Part shown: one piece after another, positions 4,977-26,371 of the stretch
Position numbering within the stretch: the stretch's first letter is position 1
Layout of the letters: each line of letters starts with the position of its first letter
NCBI GenBank assembly: GCA_012032555.1
Contig: JAAUSR010000043.1
Location: forward strand, 1-42,520
DNA from: Thioploca sp.
GTDB lineage: Bacteria > Pseudomonadota > Gammaproteobacteria > Beggiatoales > Beggiatoaceae
DNA: 42,520 nt
Direction of reading: 5' to 3'
Program-made: the position numbers and the translations under genes
The notes under the pieces: generated by a model
Databases searched by the model: none
What the model was told of the DNA's origin: nothing
The model's input: the letters and a program-made list of their open reading frames with translations, nothing else

Positions 4977-5258
4977 GGCAAATGATCTGCCTAAATCGGT
5001 TGTGCTAGGTGAATTGAAACTTGGCTGATGATTGACTTAAAAAAATAAGTTGCCTCGCCCTGAAGTTAAATCAGGATTAATCGTTGCTTAGTCTATTGTT
5101 AACTTCATAAGTAGGGAATGGCTGATTAGAATCATGTGCCATACTTCTTTAGGGATAAATTAATCCCATCTAACCCTAACAAGAGTATAACTAACTGATG
5201 ATTAGCGACGATATGCGCTATTCTCTCATTATTTACTTTTTATTTTAATGAATTAGAC

Positions 5259-5263
5259 AGGAG
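5259..5263 (+). promoter_or_regulatory. Shine-Dalgarno site pointing to an upstream nrdB start
   Basis: AGGAG, 10 bases before the ATG at 5274. No comparable site precedes the ATG at 5389. This is the main reason to think that nrdB translation begins at 5274. Confidence 0.65.
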
Positions 5264-5273
5264 ATTCACAATT

Positions 5274-5405
5274 ATGTTGGATTTTGACGACTCCGTTGAA
5301 AGTATAACGAATACCACTACAATTAACACTTACCGACGGAGATCTTCCGCTGGTCAAAGCAAAATCTCAGCTAAAGAAAAAAAAAGTAATGACTATAGCG
5401 AGTAG
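5274..5405 (+). CDS. nrdB: Probable N-terminal segment of NrdB, frame-shifted from the main ORF
   Basis: A 43-codon reading frame beginning MLDFDDSVES, with a good ribosome binding site. Class Ia NrdB proteins of gammaproteobacteria commonly start ML-(S/N/D)-(W/F)-DD followed by a variable linker, so this reads as the missing NrdB N-terminus. It runs into an A9 tract at 5377-5385. Removing one A would join it to the main frame just before the MTIASS start. As written, it ends at a TAG at 5403-5405 and overlaps the ATG at 5389. It may be a sequencing error, a mutation, RNA-polymerase slippage on A9, or a leader peptide with coupled re-initiation. Confidence 0.6.
   Translation: MLDFDDSVESITNTTTINTYRRRSSAGQSKISAKEKKSNDYSE
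5377..5385 (+). other. A9 homopolymer at the nrdB frame junction
   Basis: Nine consecutive A residues lie exactly between the MLDFDD frame and the main NrdB frame. A tract of this length is a known substrate for RNA-polymerase slippage and also a common site of sequencing indels. Confidence 0.85.
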
Positions 5406-6453
5406 CCTTGATCCCATTACAATAGGTGCTAAACGACCTCATGCAGATGATATTAAAATTATTGGCGGACGCGGTTATGATTTGCGGCAACCGATTCCAA
5501 TTAAATATCCGGAAGTGAGAGAACGTTTTTTAAATGCACGCAAGAATTTTTGGACACCCAATGACATCCCGATGGGTGAGGATAAATTACAATGGAATAC
5601 CGGGCAATTAACTGAGGCAGAAAAGTGGTTGTTTAAGACCAATATTTCTTATCTCACTGCGAGTGATAACTTAGTACCGGACAATCTGAATAATGCGATT
5701 TTGCAACATATTACTGCCAATGAAATGAGACAATATTTACGTTGGCAAATCAGTGAGGAGAGTAATCATATTGAATCCTACTTATTTATTCTCGAATCGT
5801 TTGGTTTAGATGAAAAAGGGCAAGGTCAAATTTTTAATTTATATCAAGAAATTCCAGCTTTAACTAACAAATTAAATTGGAATATTAACTTTACTAACAA
5901 CGTAGTTCATTGCGATACGTCGGTTGGGTCAATGGAAGCCAATCGTGCTCTATTAGAAGACCTGATTAGTTACTATGTCTTCGAATACTTGTTTTTTCCA
6001 TTAGGATTCTCACAAATTTTCGCGTTAGCCAGAAAAGGTAAACTGCGTAATACTGCTCAACAATATAGTTATATTTGGCGGGATGAGAACTTGCATGCAC
6101 TCAATGACTTGTGGTTAATTCGACAAATTACGCTGGAAAATCCAATACTTTGGGATGCAGCTATGCGAGAACGTTCTCGCGCTATTATTGATGAAGCGGT
6201 TAAATTAGAAATTGAATATGCTAAAGCCTCCATGCCTGATGGTGGTATTCTAGGCATGTCGATTAAAACCTATTTTGAATTTACCCAATTCATGGGCAAT
6301 CAAATTTGCCAAAATTTGGGACTAAAACCCTTATTTGCCATTAAAGAACATCCCATGCCTTGGATTAGTGAATATGAGTTAAATCAGGAAGTTAACTTTT
6401 TTGAAGGCCGGGTACGTGAATATCAAACTGGGAGTCAACTCTCTTGGGATTGA
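5389..6453 (+). CDS. nrdB: Ribonucleoside-diphosphate reductase class Ia, beta subunit
   Basis: NrdB carries the di-iron centre and the stable tyrosyl radical that starts catalysis in NrdA. Counting from this ATG, the ligands fit the E. coli spacing: D93, E124, H127, E199, E233 and H236, with radical tyrosine Y131 in ESNHIESY. The E124-x2-H127-x3-Y131 arrangement and the 34-residue gap from E199 to E233 match E115/H118/Y122 and E204/E238. The C-terminal tail, which docks on NrdA, is present. The 354 codons cover the whole catalytic domain, but the ATG has no clear ribosome binding site. The true start is probably 5274 (see that entry). Confidence 0.95.
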   Translation: MTIASSLDPITIGAKRPHADDIKIIGGRGYDLRQPIPIKYPEVRERFLNARKNFWTPNDIPMGEDKLQWNTGQLTEAEKWLFKTNISYLTASDNLVPDNLNNAILQHITANEMRQYLRWQISEESNHIESYLFILESFGLDEKGQGQIFNLYQEIPALTNKLNWNINFTNNVVHCDTSVGSMEANRALLEDLISYYVFEYLFFPLGFSQIFALARKGKLRNTAQQYSYIWRDENLHALNDLWLIRQITLENPILWDAAMRERSRAIIDEAVKLEIEYAKASMPDGGILGMSIKTYFEFTQFMGNQICQNLGLKPLFAIKEHPMPWISEYELNQEVNFFEGRVREYQTGSQLSWD

Positions 6454-7199
6454 ATGGGCACCCTATATTAGTTATCAGTATGGTCGTCCCAATCTGATTA
6501 TAGACAAAGCCGGTAATCTAGTACAATGAATTGTGACTCTTTCTTGATAAGCATTAACCGATATGGATTTAAAAATCGGGCATTACTCTATAGAATGACT
6601 AAGAAGAAAATTGTGCTAATTGGCCTTTAAAATAAGCAAACTGAAAATAAATACAGCCAATTCAGTTGTATGGTGTGCACGTTCCACAGAAAGAGTTCTA
6701 TCTTTTTTAGAAGAGGATTCTTTCTGGAGGTGACCGGTTATTAACCTTAGTTTGATAACGATTTGGCTTCTAGCTCGGCTATTGGGTTTCATTGGTATTT
6801 CACCATCTTAATGAATAAGAGAGAAAACGATAAAAAAACATACGGCAAAATGGATTGAATATCACTTTGTCACCGTTCTATGGTTATCACCGAATTAATA
6901 AAACCCTAAACTTGTATAAAGTATTGATTAATACAGAAAAATGTTTAATTAAACAGGACTAACCAAAAAATAGTGAAATCCTTATCTTGCTAATTATTTG
7001 CTAGATGCTAAAATAATTCGACGATCAAGTTAATTAAATTAAAGTTACAATATAAAATCGTGAACTGCTTCTATAAAAAGAATTGGGATAGAAGTTCTTC
7101 TTAAATTAAAAAAATAAGTCTAAGTCTAATCAAAATTTATTTGAATCAAAATCGTTAATAATTAGTGTTTAATTTCATCAGTGTCGGAGAACTGTCATT
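6454..7199. other. 746-base AT-rich gap between nrdB and trxA
   Basis: No protein gene seen. The only clear structure is a nested hairpin at 6687-6726. The rest is low-complexity AT-rich sequence that probably carries the trxA promoter. A small RNA cannot be excluded from sequence alone. Confidence 0.4.
6687..6726. other. Nested hairpin of unknown role
   Basis: The outer stem is CAGAAAGA (6687-6694) with TCTTTCTG (6719-6726). The inner stem is TTCTA (6696-6700) with TAGAA (6708-6712), around a T-rich loop. There is no U-tract after it, so it is not a standard terminator. It could be an RNA processing or stability element. Confidence 0.35.
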
Positions 7200-7526
7200 A
7201 TGAGCGAACATATCGTCTATGTTACAGACGACTCTTTTGCAGACGAAGTATTGAAATCAACTATTCCGGTGTTAGTGGACTATTGGGCAGAATGGTGTGG
7301 ACCTTGCAAAATGATCGCCCCGATTTTAAATGAAATTGCACGAGAGTATGTGGGGAAGTTAAAAGTGGCTAAATTAGACATTGATAAAAATCAAGCAACA
7401 CCGCAAAAGTATGGTATTCGAGGTATCCCTACTCTCATGCTATTTAAAGCCGGTCAAGTTGAGGCCACCAAGGTGGGGGCACTTTCTAAATCTCAACTAA
7501 TAGCCCTGTTAGATAGCAATTTGTAA
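7200..7526 (+). CDS. trxA: Thioredoxin
   Basis: A cytoplasmic thiol-disulfide reductant that keeps ribonucleotide reductase and other enzymes reduced. The 108 residues are typical. The redox motif W32-C-G-P-C36 and the cis-proline motif [11 protein letters not shown] are present. CGGAGAAC lies upstream at a usable spacing and supports the ATG. trxA followed by rho is the arrangement of E. coli and many gammaproteobacteria. The position downstream of nrdAB is also functionally sensible, although a 746-base gap argues for a separate promoter. Confidence 0.97.
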
Positions 7527-8328: not shown

Positions 8329-9585
8329 ATGAATTTAACAGCACTTAAAAAACAAACAGCCACTGATCTGATCCAAATTGCTCAAGATCTCAATTTAGAA
8401 GGAACTGCTCGTTCACGTAAACAAGACGTGATTTTTGCCCTACTGAAAGCGCATGCGAAAAAAGGGGAGGACATTTACGGTGATGGTGTTTTAGAAATTC
8501 TTCAGGATGGTTTTGGGTTCCTACGTTCTGCTGATAGTTCTTACCTCGCTGGTCCGGATGATATTTATGTTTCTCCTAGTCAAATTCGCCGATTTAATTT
8601 ACGAACCGGCGATACCGTTGCCGGAAAAATTCGGCCCCCTAAAGAAGGAGAACGTTATTTTGCTTTATTAAAAGTCAATGAAATTAATTTTGAGTTACCC
8701 GAACAAGCTAAAAATAAAGTTTTATTTGAAAATTTAACCCCACTATTTGCTAATGAACGCCTGAATTTAGAATTAGGAAATGGGAGCACGGAAGATTTAA
8801 CGCCTCGTATCATTGATTTAATTGCGCCAATTGGGAAAGGACAACGCAGCTTAATCGTCTCGCCACCTAAATCCGGTAAGACGATGATGTTACAAAATAT
8901 TGCCCACTCCATTGCCACCAATCATCCGGAATGTTATCTGATGGTTTTACTCATTGATGAGCGACCAGAAGAAGTTACTGAAATGATGAGATCGGTACGT
9001 GGTGAGGTGATTTCGAGTACTTTTGATGAACCAGCAACTCGCCATGTTCAAGTAGCTGAAATGGTGATTGAAAAAGCTAAGCGGTTGGTTGAACACAAAC
9101 TCGATGTAGTCGTTTTATTGGATTCGATTACCCGGTTAGCCCGAGCTTATAACACCGTCGTACCCTCGTCGGGTAAAGTATTGACTGGTGGTGTTGATGC
9201 CAATGCACTCCATCGACCTAAACGCTTTTTCGGAGCGGCACGTAATATTGAGGAGGGTGGTAGTTTAACGATTATAGCCACGGCTTTAATCGATACGGGT
9301 TCACGCATGGATGATGTGATTTACGAAGAATTTAAAGGTACGGGCAACAACGAAATTCATTTAGATCGTAAAATTGCTGAAAAGCGTATTTATCCGGCGA
9401 TTAATATCAATCGGTCGGGAACACGTCGGGAAGAATTACTGGCTTCCCAAGAAGAACTACAAAAAGTTTGGATTTTGCGAAAATTATTACACCCAATGGA
9501 AGAAATTGCCGCTATGGAATTTTTATTGGATCGCCTCAAAGTAACCAAAACTAATAGTGAATTTTTTGAATCAATGAAACGGTAA
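8329..9585 (+). CDS. rho: Transcription termination factor Rho
   Basis: Rho is the hexameric RNA helicase that ends transcription at unstructured C-rich RNA. I chose the ATG at 8329 over the one at 8323 because the protein then starts MNLTALKK, like E. coli MNLTELKN, and has 418 residues (E. coli 419). The N-terminal helical domain is followed by the cold-shock RNA-binding fold ([17 protein letters not shown]). The ATPase core has the P-loop PPKSGKT (about residue 180), Walker [16 protein letters not shown], the Q-loop region, and the R-loop FKGTGN. It is complete and unremarkable. Confidence 0.97.
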
Positions 9586-9663
9586 ACTCGGTTGTCAGTT
9601 ATTAGTTATCCGTTATCAGTTATCAATTACTTACACTCAGCGGTTGAAAACTGAAATCAGTTC
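9586..9663. repeat. Short heptamer repeats (TTATCAG type)
   Basis: Several imperfect head-to-tail copies of a gttatcA-type heptamer fill the gap between rho and the next gene. The same heptamer in reverse orientation lies just before sucC (34125-34143). Such simple repeats are common in filamentous sulfur bacteria and cyanobacteria; here I see no function. Confidence 0.5.
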
Positions 9664-10566
9664 ATGGCTATTAAACCTGATATTGCTGTTATCATTGTTA
9701 ATTTTAATGGTGGTGAATTACTGACACAATGTGTATGCGCTGTTTTAGCTTCAACCGTTTCGGTTGTCGTCTATATTGTTGATAATGCTTCCCAAGATAA
9801 TAGTTTACCGCTTCTACAACAAACCGTTGCCGATGATGAACGTGTACAAGTGATTAGAAATACCCATAACCTGGGATTTGCACGAGCTGCTAATCTCGCT
9901 TTACCTTATACGACTGGAGACTATTTACTGTTTCTTAACCCAGATTGTCTTATCTATCCGGATACGCTAGCACGTTTTATTAAAATGATGAATAATTATC
10001 CTCAAGCTGGTATGGCGGGTTGTTTAGTTCGTAATCTAGATGGTTCGGAACAGGCGGGGTGTCGGCGTAGTGTTCCAACCCCTTGGCGATCCGTGGTACG
10101 GATACTCCATTTAGATAAATTATTTCCTTTCTGTTACCGTTTTAATAGCTTTGTACTAACCAACCAACCATTACCCAATGAGCCAATAATTATTGAAGGA
10201 ATTTCAGGAGCCTGTATGTTTGTTCGGCGCCAAGCTTTAATAGCGGTTGGACCAATGGATGAAAACTATTTTTTACATTGCGAAGATCTAGACTGGTTTA
10301 TGCGGTTTAGGGCAAACCACTGGGATATTTTATTTATTCCCGAGATTGAAGTCGTCCACGTTAAAGGTTTTTGTAGTCACCAACAGCCAATTCGGGTGTT
10401 ATGGTATAAACATAGTGGTATGATTCGATTTTATCGAAAATTTTTTCGGCACCAGTACCCACTCTGGTTGTGGTGGTGCGTTATACTAACCGTATGGATA
10501 CGTTTTACTTTGCTAGCAATCGTCACGTGGATAAGCCATAAAAAATTAATTAAGAGCCAGTCATGA
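9664..10566 (+). CDS. Family 2 glycosyltransferase, rhamnosyltransferase-like
   Basis: A GT-A fold glycosyltransferase that probably adds a sugar to a cell-surface polysaccharide or lipid-linked glycan. Seen in the sequence: the nucleotide-binding strand VIIVNFNGGELL, the IVDNASQDNS loop, NLGFARAAN, the metal-binding FLNPDC motif (residues 91-95), and an acceptor-side motif with HCEDLDWFMRF. These are the marks of the WbbL-like group. The C-terminus carries a hydrophobic membrane segment (about residues 265-292) and a basic tail, so it is membrane-anchored. It overlaps the next gene by four bases (ATGA). The sugar donor and acceptor cannot be told from the sequence. Confidence 0.88.
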   Translation: MAIKPDIAVIIVNFNGGELLTQCVCAVLASTVSVVVYIVDNASQDNSLPLLQQTVADDERVQVIRNTHNLGFARAANLALPYTTGDYLLFLNPDCLIYPDTLARFIKMMNNYPQAGMAGCLVRNLDGSEQAGCRRSVPTPWRSVVRILHLDKLFPFCYRFNSFVLTNQPLPNEPIIIEGISGACMFVRRQALIAVGPMDENYFLHCEDLDWFMRFRANHWDILFIPEIEVVHVKGFCSHQQPIRVLWYKHSGMIRFYRKFFRHQYPLWLWWCVILTVWIRFTLLAIVTWISHKKLIKSQS

Positions 10567-11234
10567 AATTATATTTTAGTGCGCATCCTGGAAGTTGGGA
10601 ACGGCAATTACAAAGACAATATGATAATTCTCTCTTTTCTCATCTCCCCCCCATAACACAATCACGGATTGATGATGCCAAACGTAAGGATGAAGCAGAA
10701 CGGTATACATTTATGCAAGCTTTTCAAAATTTGCTACAACAAGTCGCCGACTTGGACGCTCAAGTTAAAGTAGAAGTCGTATTAAAGTTAAAAGACCAAA
10801 TTGAAGCTTTATATGAACAATGTGCTGCACTTGGCGGTCATTTTAATACAGAAAAACAGGGGTTACGTACACTTTACGAATTGATCATCCAATCTATTTT
10901 GGAAAACGTAACACTCGATCCGAATGCTCAAAACCAATTGAAACAGGAAGTGGCCGAACAAGAAAAACATGTTGCTTTATTGGAATATCCGTTGGTTGCT
11001 CATTTACTTCACCCTAAATCGCCAATACCGCAAGATGAAATTGTGCCAACTTTACTCACCGAAGATGAAGCATCGCTTCGTGCCGCTATGAGCTTATTTG
11101 CTATTCCTCAAAGGCAAATTTTATATCAAGAAGCTAAACAATTATTGACACGCTTGAAAGGTGAAGGTTATTTATTGCCTGTCGGTTGGAAACGTTTGGA
11201 AGTGATTGAGAAATTGTTGAACGAAAAAATTTAA
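10563..11234 (+). CDS. Hypothetical protein, 223 residues, translationally coupled
   Basis: I do not recognise this family. The ATG overlaps the stop of the glycosyltransferase gene (ATGA), and glucokinase follows after 31 bases, so it is probably part of a small operon. The protein looks soluble and largely helical. It has charged heptad-like stretches (QALL-type and QVKVEVVLKLKDQIEAL), no signal peptide and no membrane segment. The first residues (MKLYFSAHPGSWERQLQRQY) contain two aromatic positions that could form a domain entry. Its function is unknown. A role together with the glycosyltransferase is only an inference from coupling. Confidence 0.75.
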   Translation: MKLYFSAHPGSWERQLQRQYDNSLFSHLPPITQSRIDDAKRKDEAERYTFMQAFQNLLQQVADLDAQVKVEVVLKLKDQIEALYEQCAALGGHFNTEKQGLRTLYELIIQSILENVTLDPNAQNQLKQEVAEQEKHVALLEYPLVAHLLHPKSPIPQDEIVPTLLTEDEASLRAAMSLFAIPQRQILYQEAKQLLTRLKGEGYLLPVGWKRLEVIEKLLNEKI

Positions 11235-11265
11235 TTCGTTAATTCCGATAAATTGTATGGAGTAA

Positions 11266-12297
11266 TTGATGATCTTAGTTGGTGATATCGGCGGCACTAA
11301 AACTCATCTTGCCTTATTTAGCTCCAGTAAAACTCAATGGCTAGTTCAATTTGAAGCAATTTATCCCAGTAAAAACTATGCTAGCTTGGCAGAAGTTATA
11401 CAACATTTTTTAGGGCAAGCAAAACCACAACACGCTATTCAAGCCGCTGGTTTTGGGGTAGCCGGTCCAGTCATTCAAGCCCAGTGCCAAATAACTAACT
11501 TACCTTGGATTATTACTGTTGCCCAGTTACAACAGCAATTATCAACGACAAAAATATTTTTAATGAATGATTTGGAATCCATTGGATTGGGTATTCCCTA
11601 CTTACCACCAGACAAATTAATCGCACTGAACCCAACCGCGACGATTCAACCCGGTAATAAAGCACTGATTGCAGCTGGAACCGGTTTAGGGGAAGGTTTG
11701 CTTTATTGGGATGGTAACCAATTCCATGCCGTTGCTTCTGAGGGAGGACAGGTTAATTTTGCACCGCGTGATCAACGGGAAATGGAGCTATTGCATTATT
11801 GGCAACAACAACTGACTCATGTTAGTTATGAACACGTTTTATCTGGACCGGGCTTATTCAATATTTATCAATTTCTTAAACACAGTGGTTATGGAGAAGA
11901 ACCCGCTTGGTTAACCCAACAATTAAATCAACTTGATCCAAGTGCTGTTATTGCCGAAATGGGCTTAAGTCATCACAATCAGTTATGTGTGCAAGCCCTA
12001 GATATGTTGGTATCTATTTATGGCGCCGCCGCTGGTAATTTAGCACTGAAGTTTATGGCATTAGGGGGTGTTTATTTGGGCGGCGGTATTGCGCCTAAGA
12101 TTATTACTCAATTACAGGAAGGAACTTTTATGCGGGCTTTTACTAATAAAGGTCGATTTGCTCAGTTACTGAACACCATACCGGTCTATGTTATCTTAGA
12201 TCCCAAAGCCGGTTTATGGGGAATCGCTAGGTATACGATCCACCAAGCTTATTCTTCAGATGTTGTTTCGCTAGTTATCAACAACTGTCACACCTGA
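11266..12297 (+). CDS. glk: Glucokinase
   Basis: Phosphorylates glucose with ATP to glucose 6-phosphate in the cytoplasm. It belongs to the bacterial glucokinase family rather than the ROK repressor family. Motifs seen: the phosphate-binding GDIGGTKTHLALF near the start, FGVAGPV, FLMNDLESIGLG with the likely catalytic Asp, AAGTGLGEGLLYW, and SEGGQVNFAPRDQRE. The length of 343 is slightly above the E. coli enzyme (321). Either of the first two ATG codons could be used. It may supply glucose 6-phosphate to the nearby glycan genes or work with stored polysaccharide; both are inferences. Confidence 0.93.
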   Translation: MMILVGDIGGTKTHLALFSSSKTQWLVQFEAIYPSKNYASLAEVIQHFLGQAKPQHAIQAAGFGVAGPVIQAQCQITNLPWIITVAQLQQQLSTTKIFLMNDLESIGLGIPYLPPDKLIALNPTATIQPGNKALIAAGTGLGEGLLYWDGNQFHAVASEGGQVNFAPRDQREMELLHYWQQQLTHVSYEHVLSGPGLFNIYQFLKHSGYGEEPAWLTQQLNQLDPSAVIAEMGLSHHNQLCVQALDMLVSIYGAAAGNLALKFMALGGVYLGGGIAPKIITQLQEGTFMRAFTNKGRFAQLLNTIPVYVILDPKAGLWGIARYTIHQAYSSDVVSLVINNCHT

Positions 12298-23363: not shown

Positions 23364-24857
23364 ATGAAAATGATTCGACTTAATTTTGCGTTAATGATGT
23401 TCTTAATCAGCCTACCACTACTGACCTTAGCGGGTAGTTTAGAACCGCCGGGTCCGCCGGGTAGCATGAGTAGTGCGATGTATCGAGTTGAAGATATCTG
23501 CCAGCGGTTAAAAACGGGAGTGGAACCGGAATTGAAACCGTTTCGTGGGCCGACGAGTGGTCCGGGAGCGAGTAGCGGCTGTACCCTCAATGACGTGATG
23601 GGGGTAGCACCAAAAAAAGATGAGGCGAGCGGCGCACAAGCGTCGGAAGTGCTGATGGGAAAAAGCTATTGGGGTCTGCGAGCTGAGCAATGGGGAAAGC
23701 AAACCGGAACGATGGTGGATCAAGGCGCGCCAACCTATATGCCGAGTACCGAAGATCAAATGATAGCCGCCGGTTATCATAATGGCCAAGGGATAGTGCG
23801 AGGAGATGAAGACTTGAGAAGCGCGAACCTGAAAGAAGGGGTCGAACTGTTTGGCGTGAAAGGCAGTTATAATCCGTTGGTATCGACCGGTGATGTGCAT
23901 GAAGAGTCGGTATTAGCCGGTAAAACGTTTTCGAATGAGCATGGAACGGATTTAGTAGGCACGATGGTCAATCAGGGAGCTAAGAACTATACGCCGAGCG
24001 CCAATGATCAACCAATAGCCGCTGGCTATTACGATGGTTCTGGTGTGGTGAAAGGAGATGCTAATTTAATCTCGAGTAATATCAAAGCAGGGGTAAAAAT
24101 TTTTGGCGTGTCTGGTGATAAGCATGTAGTCGATACGAGTAGCGGCAATGCTAATTCGAGTTACCTGTTAGAAGGCCAAAAGGCTTGGGTAAAAGGCAAG
24201 GAGATCACGGGAAGTTTATCGCTTCAAAATTTAGTGAATACCAGTAGTGGTGATGCCCTAGCGAGTGAAATTATCACGGGTAAGAAAGCATGGGTAGATG
24301 GCGTGGAAGTGACGGGAACGCGTCCATTGGCGCCAGTATCGAAAACGGGGCAAACGACTTCTTATGCAGCGGGAGATGACGGAACTCATCAGCAAGGCGT
24401 AACGATGTCCCCCCGATTTACGGATAATGGTGATGGAACGGTGAAGGATAATCTGACCGGTTTAATTTGGTTGAAAAAAGCGAATTGTATAGGAACAGAT
24501 AATTCGAGTTCTGATGCGGATGGAACGATTGGAGATGGAATGGTTTATTGGCAAACCGCTCTGAATTTTGTAACCAATTTGAATGCTACGCCAGCTAATT
24601 GTGGAGTGACTCAGACGGATTGGCGTTTGCCTAATCTGAAAGAATTGCAAAGCTTAATAGATTATGGTCAAAGTAATCCGGCATTGCCATCAGGTCATCC
24701 GTTTTCAGGTGTTCAGTCGGACCACTATTGGTCGGCTACGACGGTCGCGAGTAGTAGTACGAGTCTCGCGTGGGGCGTGAACCTTGGCTACGGCAGCGTC
24801 GTCACCAACGATAAGACGGGCCCCTACTATGTGTGGCCAGTTAGAGGCGGACAATAG
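23364..24857 (+). CDS. Secreted DUF1566 protein with a DGR-type variable C-terminus
   Basis: 497 residues. The N-terminus is a signal peptide (cleavage likely after LAG, about residue 24). Two 70-residue repeats (about 99-170 and 186-252) share PS-x2-DQ-x-IAAGY and NIKAGVKIFGVSG-like motifs known from phage tail-associated and lectin-like proteins. Two further short repeats end KAWVKGKEITG and KAWVDGVEVTG. Residues about 351-495 form a DUF1566 (Lcl C-terminal) domain: DNGDGTVKDNLTGLIWL, DWRLPNLKELQSL, HYWSATT, and a final VWPVRGGQ. This is the fold class used by many diversity-generating retroelement targets. Residues 471-488 are encoded mainly by NNC codons (see the variable-region entry). 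It is probably an exported binding protein; its ligand is unknown. Confidence 0.85.
   Translation: MKMIRLNFALMMFLISLPLLTLAGSLEPPGPPGSMSSAMYRVEDICQRLKTGVEPELKPFRGPTSGPGASSGCTLNDVMGVAPKKDEASGAQASEVLMGKSYWGLRAEQWGKQTGTMVDQGAPTYMPSTEDQMIAAGYHNGQGIVRGDEDLRSANLKEGVELFGVKGSYNPLVSTGDVHEESVLAGKTFSNEHGTDLVGTMVNQGAKNYTPSANDQPIAAGYYDGSGVVKGDANLISSNIKAGVKIFGVSGDKHVVDTSSGNANSSYLLEGQKAWVKGKEITGSLSLQNLVNTSSGDALASEIITGKKAWVDGVEVTGTRPLAPVSKTGQTTSYAAGDDGTHQQGVTMSPRFTDNGDGTVKDNLTGLIWLKKANCIGTDNSSSDADGTIGDGMVYWQTALNFVTNLNATPANCGVTQTDWRLPNLKELQSLIDYGQSNPALPSGHPFSGVQSDHYWSATTVASSSTSLAWGVNLGYGSVVTNDKTGPYYVWPVRGGQ
24711..24857 (+). other. Candidate DGR variable region (VR)
   Basis: From 24774 to 24827, 13 of 18 codons end in C (GGC, AAC, TAC, AGC, GTC, ACC, CCC), with first and second bases varied. 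In the preceding 40 codons (24600-24719) only one ends in C. AAC codons in a template, randomised at their adenines, would give just this NNC series. The varied sites alternate with fixed residues (W, V, K, then YVWPVRGG), as in DUF1566 targets of known DGRs. The fixed 3' end (about 24828-24857) would be the site where template-directed copying starts. Confidence 0.7.
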
Positions 24858-24885
24858 GTCATTTGATTATTTGGGGGGGGTGCAG

Positions 24886-25160
24886 AAGCGTAGGTCGGCA
24901 ATCCTTTGCCGACATGCATGACTGGCGGGAAAGGATTCCCGCCCTACTACAATCTAGGAAGCGTAGCATGACTGGCGGGAAAGGATTCCCGCCCTACAAT
25001 CTAGGAAGCGTAGGTCGGCAATCCTTTGCCGACATGCATGACTGAATGTTTTGAGCGACGGGTTCATGGGTTCGTGAATGTTAAAACGGGTTCACAGAAG
25101 CGTAGGTCGGCAATCCTTTGCCGACATGCATGACTGGCGGGAAAGGATTCCCGCCCTACT
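24886..25160. repeat. Array of two interleaved palindromic repeats
   Basis: Unit A, GTAGGTCGGCAATCC-TTTGCCGAC-ATGCATGACT, occurs at about 24886-24923, 25007-25043 and 25097-25135. Unit B, GGCGGGAAAGG-ATTCCCGCC-CTAC, occurs at 24924-24947, 24974-24997 and 25136-25159. Both fold into tight hairpins with GC-rich stems. Copies are nearly identical, which points to recent amplification. They start 30 bases after the stop of the DUF1566 gene. Confidence 0.85.
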
Positions 25161-25171
25161 AGCCCGCGTAG

Positions 25172-25256
25172 GTTGGGCTGAGGTACGAAGCCCAACATTC
25201 ATGGATCAATGATGCCTCCAAATAAAGGTTGGGCTGACGTAAGGAGACCCAACCTA
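25172..25256. repeat. Two REP-like hairpins, GTTGGGCT family
   Basis: GTTGGGCT with AGCCCAAC at 25172-25195, and a related gttgggct with acccaacctac at 25228-25256. They extend the repeat cluster between the DUF1566 gene and the toxin gene. Confidence 0.65.
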
Positions 25257-25296: not shown

Positions 25297-25572
25297 ATGT
25301 ACTTCGAGTGGGATGAATCAAAAGCGGAAAACAACCAACATAAGCATGGGGTAAGTTTTCAGGAAGCCAGTAGTTGTTTTTATGATCCTCATCAAGTCGC
25401 GTTTTATGACCCCGATCATAGTGATGAAGAAGACCGAGAAATTTTAATGGGTCACTCTAATCCAGGTCGGTTATTATTAGTGGTGTATACCCTAAGAGAA
25501 GATACCATCCGCTTGATTTCAGCACGACCCGCTACTAAACGTGAAGCCAATGATTATGCGCAAGGAATATAA
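25297..25572 (+). CDS. brnT: BrnT-type ribonuclease toxin
   Basis: 91 residues that match the BrnT toxin family: MYFEWDESKAENNQHKHGVSF at the start, a central FYDP-x-HSDEEDREI segment, and the C-terminal RLISARPATKREANDY. BrnT is a RelE-like RNase that is neutralised by BrnA, which also represses the operon. The conserved KHG histidine is present, so it looks active. The antitoxin gene overlaps its end by 17 bases. It is probably a plasmid-free chromosomal toxin-antitoxin pair in the accessory island. Confidence 0.88.
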   Translation: MYFEWDESKAENNQHKHGVSFQEASSCFYDPHQVAFYDPDHSDEEDREILMGHSNPGRLLLVVYTLREDTIRLISARPATKREANDYAQGI

Positions 25573-25861
25573 TTTAAAGCAAATGAAAGTGAAACGTCGT
25601 GGTGTTCTACCGCTACTGAATCGGCCAGAAACCCGTCCAGACCAAGTGAGTCTTACTCTCACGCTAGACCAAGACATCGTCGCATATTTTAACAGTGCCG
25701 CTGAACAACCTGGTGCCTTGCCTTATCAAGCTCAAATTAATCAGGTGTTGCGTCAAGTGATGGAAACTGATGGATTGGATGTTCTCGAAATCATAAAAAA
25801 CCAGTTGCTTAATGATCCAGAGTTTATTCGTAAATTAGCTCAGTTAATCAAGGTGGCATAG
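25556..25861 (+). CDS. brnA: BrnA-type antitoxin
   Basis: I chose the ATG at 25556, giving MRKEYNLKQMKVKRRG, because BrnA proteins typically start M-(K/R)-x-EY(D/N). This overlaps brnT by 17 bases. An upstream ATG at 25541 and a downstream one at 25583 are possible. The C-terminal half has the ribbon-helix-helix pattern of the family (VSLTLTLDQDIVAYF, then YQAQINQVLRQVM), which binds DNA and the toxin. At about 100 residues it is slightly long because of a Leu-rich tail (ILEIIKN-like). Coupled expression with brnT and autoregulation are expected for the family. Confidence 0.8.
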   Translation: MRKEYNLKQMKVKRRGVLPLLNRPETRPDQVSLTLTLDQDIVAYFNSAAEQPGALPYQAQINQVLRQVMETDGLDVLEIIKNQLLNDPEFIRKLAQLIKVA

Positions 25862-25897
25862 CCTATTCGTGTCCCATGGACAAAGTGGGCGGATGGG

Positions 25898-25911
25898 GTT
25901 CAGTCGGACCA
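25898..25911 (+). other. Possible remnant of a DGR template repeat
   Basis: gttcagtcggacca is an exact 14-base copy of 24711-24724, the start of the candidate variable region. It lies 17 bases before the reverse-transcriptase-like fragment, the place where template repeats usually sit. The homology stops after these bases. A chance 14-base match within a window of this size is possible, so position is the main support. Confidence 0.35.
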
Positions 25912-25927
25912 TTAAGAGTTATATTCT

Positions 25928-26040
25928 TTGATAAATGCCAATCACCCCTTATTTCGTTTAGAGAATCTTTATCAAGCTTATCGGCAGTGTCGTCGCCGTA
26001 GTAACACGTGTAATGCGTTAGCTTTTGAAATCAATAGAAC
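25928..26040 (+). pseudogene. N-terminal fragment of a reverse transcriptase
   Basis: The reading frame gives NHPLFRLENLYQAYRQCRRR followed by SNTCNALAFEIN. This resembles the conserved start of bacterial reverse transcriptases of the DGR/retron-like class (LENLY-x-AYR-x-CRRRKR-x-T-x-NALAFE-x-N). Only about 37 residues remain; none of the catalytic blocks, including YxDD, is present. A short inverted repeat (TGCATCA/TGATGCA, 26041-26065) marks the point where homology stops and the toxin cassette begins. The assignment rests on family pattern memory, so it is moderate. Confidence 0.55.
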
Positions 26041-26077
26041 TGCATCAATCAGAGAATCTGATGCAACTAAAAAGAAA

Positions 26078-26371
26078 ATGAAATTTGAATGGGATACGAA
26101 AAAAGAACAAACCAACATTAATAAACAGGGTGTTTCTTTTGAGCAGGGATCCTATGTTTTTGCAGATCCATATGCACTTAACCAATATGACGATGATCAT
26201 TCAATCAAAGCGGATCGGTGGTTGATTCTAGGAAAATCAATAAATGAGGTTATACCTGTAGTAGTCCACACCTTCAAAGATCAAGAGGGGATGGAAATGG
26301 TAAGAATTATCAGTGCACGGAAAGCAACGAAACATGAAAGAAACACATATCAAAGCCGGTGTCCAAAATGA
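26078..26371 (+). CDS. Second BrnT-type toxin, with KHG changed to KQG
   Basis: I start at the ATG at 26078, where the protein reads MKFEWDTKKEQTNINKQGVS, because that is the family N-terminus; the open frame extends upstream into the RT fragment but is unrelated. Central VFADPYALNQYDDDHS and C-terminal VRIISARKATKHERNTY fit BrnT. The near-invariant KHG reads KQG here, so activity may be reduced. The stop overlaps the ATG of a damaged antitoxin (ATGA). The gene lies in a unit that ends at a candidate attC site, so it may have arrived as an integron cassette. Confidence 0.8.
   Translation: MKFEWDTKKEQTNINKQGVSFEQGSYVFADPYALNQYDDDHSIKADRWLILGKSINEVIPVVVHTFKDQEGMEMVRIISARKATKHERNTYQSRCPK

What the first reader, a model, noticed from the sequence alone, without database searches (positions are those of the whole stretch)
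24711..24857. DGR-type variable region at the end of a secreted DUF1566 gene
Seen directly: in 24774-24827, 13 of 18 codons end in C, while in the 40 codons before (24600-24719) only one does. The NNC codons encode G, N, Y, S, V, T and P and alternate with fixed residues. Known: DGR reverse transcriptases mutate adenines of AAC codons, so target codons become NNC, and DUF1566/C-type-lectin-like domains with a terminal variable region are established targets. Inference: this secreted protein was diversified by a DGR, probably for surface recognition.
Basis: partly seen in the sequence, partly recalled or inferred. Interest (0 to 1): 0.85.

Follow-up and report, generated by a model that had tools for sequence, protein, structure and literature searches.

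The report
Orphaned targets of a deleted DGR
This bacterium carries five genes for lectin-like proteins whose tips were scrambled by a mutation-making genetic element, but in the assembled genome that element is gone except for a small stump beside one of the genes.

Summary
The codon pattern is real: 13 of 18 codons end in C, against 1 of 40 just before. It is the footprint of a diversity-generating retroelement (DGR). The genome holds four more copies of this variable region (VR). Among the five, 15 of 15 columns with three or more bases fall on adenines of a real template from an unrelated cassette. Third-position divergence is 0.39 upstream but 0.11 inside the VR. A paralog without the pattern exists.

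No intact template, DGR reverse transcriptase (RT) or Avd was found in the assembly, 99.7% complete. The likely reason lies in this window: 25883-26029 holds, in cassette order, a pre-template motif, a 17-nt template stub and 29 residues of the RT N-terminus, 80% identical to a known cassette. The post-VR hairpin used in homing is cut short after three copies and missing after two. Another genome of the family shows broken RT pieces behind its targets.

Best reading: targets of a DGR whose core was later deleted. Active variants elsewhere in the population are not excluded. Degenerate DGR loci are already described: a new member of a known kind.

The parts
23364..24857 (+). DGR target gene, 497 aa: apparent signal peptide (by eye), repetitive stalk, C-terminal Lcl_C domain
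24435..24845 (+). Lcl_C (lectin-like) domain
   Evidence: 107.6 bits; model of 24414-24854, closest solved structure Legionella Lcl C-terminal domain, Z 9.9
24720..24857 (+). Variable region (VR), about 138 nt, NNC codons where templates have AAC
24858..24885 (+). Post-VR spacer and G-run ending in GTGCAG; the rest of the hairpin present in relatives is missing
   Evidence: intact hairpin pattern absent from this genome
24883..25249 (.). Array of short repeats that follows directly on the truncated hairpin
25297..25861 (+). BrnT/BrnA toxin-antitoxin pair between the target gene and the stump, where intact cassettes have Avd
   Evidence: Pfam; cassette order
25883..25893 (+). Pre-template motif AAGTGGGCGGA
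   Evidence: same 11 bases just before the templates of L171 and L173, one-base variant in L172
25895..25911 (+). Template 5' stub, 17 nt, 16 of 17 as in this gene's VR start
   Evidence: identity as template rests on its position
25943..26029 (+). RT N-terminal stub, 29 residues (weaker similarity to 26050)
   Evidence: 80% over 30 alignment positions to the L173 RT, E 1.4e-9; profile E 1.9e-8
26072..26371 (+). Second BrnT-type gene, which follows the RT stub
   Evidence: Pfam

Best explanation
The gene is one of five VR-bearing copies of a Lcl_C (DUF1566-type) protein family that a DGR used to rewrite. By the known DGR pathway, a template RNA is copied by an error-prone RT that randomises adenines, and the cDNA replaces the 3' end of the target, so AAC template codons become NNC codons in the lectin-like tip. 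Shown here: the A-directed footprint, one shared template behind five loci, and a stump of the core (pre-template motif, template 5' end, RT N-terminus) 1 kb downstream. Inferred: the core was deleted, the homing hairpin was cut short, and diversification has stopped in the assembled strain, leaving a frozen and partly decaying set of variants. What the tips bind is unknown; a surface or secreted recognition role is the likeliest.
For: 15 of 15 columns with three or more bases, and 33 of 48 variable columns (19.0 expected), fall on adenines of the independent L173 template; for L171 it is 14 of 15 and 31 of 48. Third-position divergence 0.388 upstream, 0.112 in the VR. VR of C39: 14 departures from the inferred template, all at A. 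Spectrum at A: G 55, T 21, C 9 here; G 159, T 97, C 40 in 17 real template/VR pairs. Non-A columns differ 7.6% within this genome, 18.7% against other genomes. RT stub E 1.4e-9 and profile E 1.9e-8, nothing in reversed DNA. No intact core found. Hairpin truncated or missing. C21 frameshifted, C45 truncated, C92 a relic. Broken RT of the same clade behind targets in G061.
Against: The C39 VR carries no non-A change, so it was written recently or drift is slow. The stub reads C where a template should read A. The assembly is a draft: a core in a gap or on another replicon cannot be excluded. The Avd profile also missed genomes that do have a DGR RT, such as G007, G017 and G030. Within G018, G061 and G002 the non-A columns differ 27%, 17% and 18%, so one shared recent template is not evident there.
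Confidence: 0.78

Rival explanations
1. The DGR is still active: an intact core sits in an assembly gap, on an unbinned plasmid or phage, or in other strains of the population, and writes these VRs in cis or in trans.
For: 198 contigs; the C21 VR ends 332 nt from its contig end; C39 is pristine at non-A positions. In Thiohalocapsa PB-PSB1, loci that are degenerate in the reference coexist with intact variants, and some targets are best explained by trans activity (PMC10907252, passages). No matching template was found in any of 12 genomes that bear this VR class, which repeated loss alone must explain.
Against: 99.69% completeness; RT searches sensitive enough for this clade found none; the hairpin pattern is absent from the genome; the local core is a stub; three of six loci with VR sequence are damaged.
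Confidence: 0.18
2. Not a DGR: local codon or GC bias, or gene conversion among paralogs, produced the pattern.
For: Codon composition does change abruptly inside the gene.
Against: Variation sits on codon positions 1 and 2 while position 3 is nearly fixed; gene conversion would homogenise all columns alike. The variable columns match adenines of independent templates. The C50 paralog has ordinary codons. Template and RT stubs lie beside the gene.
Confidence: 0.02
3. The DGR wrote the VRs long ago elsewhere and the target genes arrived already diversified by horizontal transfer; the stump next to this gene is an unrelated fragment.
For: In the same-genus genome G001 the two flanks of this locus lie far apart, so the region is accessory.
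Against: Pre-template motif, template start and RT N-terminus lie in cassette order within 150 bases; G001 has a relic VR of its own.
Confidence: 0.05

Closest known systems
DGR cassettes L171 (Verrucomicrobia MAG, JABGOW010000201.1) and L173 (bacterium Bpl_9 MAG, JAAELQ010000248.1)
   Same: Lcl_C-type target ending in VWPVRGG, VR with NNC codons, post-VR hairpin, pre-template motif, RT N-terminus
   Different: They still hold Avd, a template and an RT (in L173 the RT is cut by the end of the stretch fetched); here only stubs are left
Degenerate DGR loci of Thiohalocapsa PB-PSB1 (PMC10907252; abstract and passages)
   Same: Loci with missing or pseudogenised core; repeat arrays in place of core parts
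   Different: There each class keeps one complete locus and the targets are conflict-system proteins; here no complete locus was found and targets are Lcl_C proteins with an apparent signal peptide
Cyanobacterial VR-bearing paralog all3226 without RT (PMC7517822; passages)
   Same: Target with VR-like sequence and no RT nearby; the authors suggest removal of the machinery after use
   Different: No stump reported in the passages seen; here five copies and a readable stump
Bordetella phage BPP-1 DGR (PMC3240598; abstract and passages; record)
   Same: Adenine mutagenesis at the 3' end of a target, hairpin after the VR needed for efficient homing
   Different: Working phage element with Mtd as target
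DUF1566 DGRs in PMC6642488 (passages) and in G016 contig C27 (L099)
   Same: DUF1566-type targets, several VRs per genome
   Different: Core present; in G016 the target ends in HVRLVRDGQ and its template does not match these VRs over their length

Membership tests
Diversity-generating retroelement | VR whose variation falls on adenines of a template | tested here: met
   Against templates of other organisms: 15 of 15 and 14 of 15 strongly variable columns; no template of its own to compare
Diversity-generating retroelement | Intact template repeat in the genome | tested here: not met
   only a 17-nt stub at 25895-25911
Diversity-generating retroelement | DGR-type reverse transcriptase gene | tested here: not met
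   best full-length RT reads QGMVLSP, not the GNLTSQ of DGR RTs in relatives; N-terminal stub at 25943-26029
Diversity-generating retroelement | Avd or other accessory protein | tested here: inconclusive
   No match at E 1e-4 in this genome, but the profile also missed genomes with a DGR RT
Diversity-generating retroelement | Hairpin just after the VR | tested here: not met
   Truncated after C19, C39, C45, absent after C62, C21; exact pattern absent from the genome
Diversity-generating retroelement | VR differs among cells or strains | not testable with these tools
   No reads and no second genome of the species at hand
Lcl_C / DUF1566-type target protein | Pfam Lcl_C domain at the C-terminus | tested here: met
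   104.2 bits against cut-off 34.9
C-type lectin-like fold | Structure like solved C-type lectin domains | tested here: inconclusive
   Model pLDDT 67.7; Lcl of Legionella Z 9.9, mannose receptor CRD Z 8.9; Foldseek best E 3.4e-3

The most novel reading that the evidence does not exclude
The whole class of VRs ending in VWPVRGG in this bacterial family (12 of 42 genomes) is written in trans by a mobile helper DGR on a plasmid or phage that genome assemblies and bins miss, so the bacteria keep only the target genes and borrow the mutator.
Probability: 0.1. Interest if true: 0.8.

Novelty: new member of a known kind. Interest (0 to 1): 0.55.

Why it matters
One window shows the end of a DGR's life: target gene, truncated homing site and a readable stump of template and RT. 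If lineages use a mutator and then discard it while keeping the diversified receptors, one can ask directly whether hypermutated receptors stay under selection once the mutator is gone. It also means that surveys keyed on the RT gene miss such targets; the authors of one survey say that theirs would not detect remote targets (PMC8144416, passage).

Tried and rejected
Codon or GC bias: rejected by the C50 paralog and by third-position conservation. The C197 RT as the writer: its motif is QGMVLSP. The C92 hit as a template: it is the last codons of a target gene whose middle is replaced by a repeat array. RGGSW-type DGRs of relatives as the writer: template/VR pairs of that type were seen in ten family genomes, but with templates of another target type. 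Viral contigs as carrier: two exact template patterns found nothing; a profile of the domain found two loci, of which L202 has a VR of this class and no RT in its 10 kb. The whole protein has no match in phage records at E 1e-5 and only partial matches in eight plasmid records. NCBIfam gave one sub-cut-off match, Lsa25.

Limits. One search missed the VRs of G007 and G035 that one search had found, so its reach in distant genera is imperfect. The sample was 369 genomes of a larger class.

Full report
OBSERVATION. The gene is 23364-24857 and ends in a Pfam Lcl_C domain. NNC codons extend from about 24720 to the end of the gene.

FIVE VARIABLE REGIONS. The genome (5.55 Mb, 198 contigs, 99.69% complete, 1.34% contaminated) holds four more full VRs, on contigs C62, C39, C45 and C21, and a remnant on C92. 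Pfam Lcl_C finds six genes: the five with VRs and one on C50, where only 4 of 23 matching codons end in C.

A-DIRECTED VARIATION. In codon alignments of the five copies, the sequence upstream of the VR differs at codon positions 1, 2 and 3 by 0.258, 0.260 and 0.388; the VR differs by 0.269, 0.240 and 0.112. To get templates that do not depend on this genome, GTDB genomes were scanned for a peptide-level template pattern; six loci came back, of which L171, L172 and L173 end in VWPVRGG like ours. L171 has two targets, Avd, template and RT; L173 has target, Avd, template and the first part of an RT, cut by the end of the stretch fetched. Against the L173 template, 33 of 48 variable columns lie on adenines (19.0 expected, p 4e-8) and 15 of 15 columns with three or more bases do; for L171 it is 31 of 48 and 14 of 15. 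The copies are related and columns not independent, so the p-values are guides. Against a template inferred from the VRs, C39 departs at 14 positions, all A; C62, C21, C19 and C45 have 4, 5, 3 and 7 non-A departures. A was set by hand at the variable positions of that template, so only the non-A counts are independent. Changed adenines read G 55, T 21, C 9; in 17 real template/VR pairs of other genomes, one direction of each pair, they read G 159, T 97, C 40, with 28 non-A mismatches.

SEARCHES WITH THE INFERRED TEMPLATE. It matched 17 plasmid records (14 Vibrio, 2 Shewanella, 1 Yersinia) and 7 phage records. I read one of each: both are template/VR pairs with A-biased mismatches beside an annotated RT. 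In 369 genomes of the class, 6 had matches including this one; of the five others, L160 and L162 are template/VR pairs and L161 is a VR. In 42 family genomes it gave 25 matches. By reading one is a template, that of another DUF1566-type DGR in G016, and the others are VRs or VR remnants. VRs of our class occur in 12 of the 42 genomes (union, read), and none of the 12 gave a matching template, though one search also missed the VRs of G007 and G035. Of 33 VR rows, five were dropped before (G001 relic, G060_C123, G017_C479, G031_C54, G108_C64). There, non-A columns differ 7.6% within this genome (A columns 54%) and 18.7% between it and others; within G035 and G033 4.8% and 7.1%; but within G018, G061 and G002 26.7%, 16.7% and 17.5%.

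NO CORE FOUND. Pfam RVT_1 gives seven matches here, the strongest reading QGMVLSP. The BPP-1 RT, a profile of 11 DGR RTs and a profile of 4 Avd proteins find no DGR RT or Avd. The RT profile scores the L171 RT at E 7e-102, so an intact RT of this clade would have been seen if assembled. The Avd profile is weaker: it also missed G007, G017 and G030, which have DGR RTs.

THE STUMP. At 25943-26029 the + strand encodes 29 residues, 80% identical over 30 alignment positions to the N-terminus of the L173 RT (E 1.4e-9), and 57% over 37 for L171. A profile of six RT N-termini gives this ORF E 1.9e-8 among 2656 ORFs of the window and seven other own-genome loci; the next are the C197 RT at 0.011 and one at 0.57; reversed DNA gives none. 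Upstream, AAGTGGGCGGA (25883-25893) is the motif just before the templates of L171 and L173, with a one-base variant in L172; it occurs once in the window and in none of six other own-genome loci or 23 stretches from relatives. Between them, 25895-25911 agrees in 16 of 17 bases with the start of this gene's VR. One base there reads C where a template should read A, so its identity as template rests on position. A BrnT/BrnA pair lies where Avd sits in intact cassettes and another BrnT gene follows the RT stub.

THE HOMING SITE. After the VRs of L171, L173 and several relatives come a spacer and a GC-rich hairpin, absent after the two templates. In BPP-1 such a hairpin is required for efficient retrohoming (PMC3240598; abstract and passages). 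Here C19 and C45 keep the G-run up to GTGCAG and then run into other sequence, a repeat array in C19; C39 keeps one arm; C62 and C21 show none. The exact hairpin pattern has no match in this genome and 15 sites in 10 of 42 family genomes; the reversed control pattern has 3 sites. Eight of the 15 follow a VR of this class.

DECAY. C21 is read in three frames, C45 matches only from residue 224 on, and C92 has an N-terminal piece and the last codons with repeats between. The same-genus genome G001 has a frameshifted relic VR. In G061 contig C1042 two targets are followed by broken pieces of an RT of the same clade, with no Avd or template recognised. It is the only RT relic found in 23 stretches (262,741 bases) around VRs of relatives and the G001 relic.

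FUNCTION. The domain model is moderate (mean pLDDT 67.7). Its best match is the Lcl C-terminal domain of Legionella (Z 9.9), then C-type lectins (Z 8.9 and less); Foldseek alone gives no match at E 0.001 or better. With an apparent signal peptide and a repetitive stalk, a secreted or surface recognition protein is likely but untested.

LITERATURE. Degenerate DGR loci, with repeat arrays in place of core parts and with intact variants in the population, are described for Thiohalocapsa PB-PSB1 (PMC10907252; abstract and passages). A VR-bearing cyanobacterial paralog without RT is mentioned in PMC7517822 (passages). DUF1566 targets and a DGR with six VRs are in PMC6642488 (passages). Searches pairing the DGR term with Thiotrichales or Thioploca found no paper, with Beggiatoa two, with Thiomargarita three and with words for remnants one; of these six I opened only PMC10907252. 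That the host is Thioploca-like is a guess from the size of G001 and is recalled, not shown.

VERDICT. That a DGR wrote this VR is close to certain. That its core was deleted at this locus is very likely. That it is now inactive is likely but open. The kind is known; this member is unusually readable.

Noticed in passing
L099 (G016:C27:103500-118500), 8930-11870: Complete DUF1566-type DGR in a family member: two targets, Avd, template and RT in 3 kb.
   Followed up: partly
L047, L106, L107, L138, L140, L145, L147, L148, L149, L153, L154 (ten family genomes): Template/VR pairs of RGGSW-like targets are common in this bacterial family; several of the RT genes carry stops.
   Followed up: partly
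L202 (IMGVR_UViG_3300022871_000011), 5001-5411: A contig filed as viral carries a VR of this class followed by a G-run and hairpin, with no RT in the 10 kb held.
   Followed up: partly
L207 (G027:C23), L210 (G061:C71), L217 (G061:C500): Three hairpins with the same spacer follow an ending other than VWPVRGG, possibly a second target type of the same system.
   Followed up: no
window 24883-25249 and L105 (G000:C92) around 7190-7400: Arrays of short palindrome-like repeats sit exactly at the broken DGR parts, as MITE-like arrays do in Thiohalocapsa.
   Followed up: partly
window 25297-25861 and 26072-26371: A BrnT/BrnA pair and a second BrnT gene flank the DGR stump.
   Followed up: partly
L014/L104 (G000:C197:1149-1742): RT with QGMVLSP motif near a contig end; resembles CRISPR-associated RTs by recall, not tested.
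   Followed up: no
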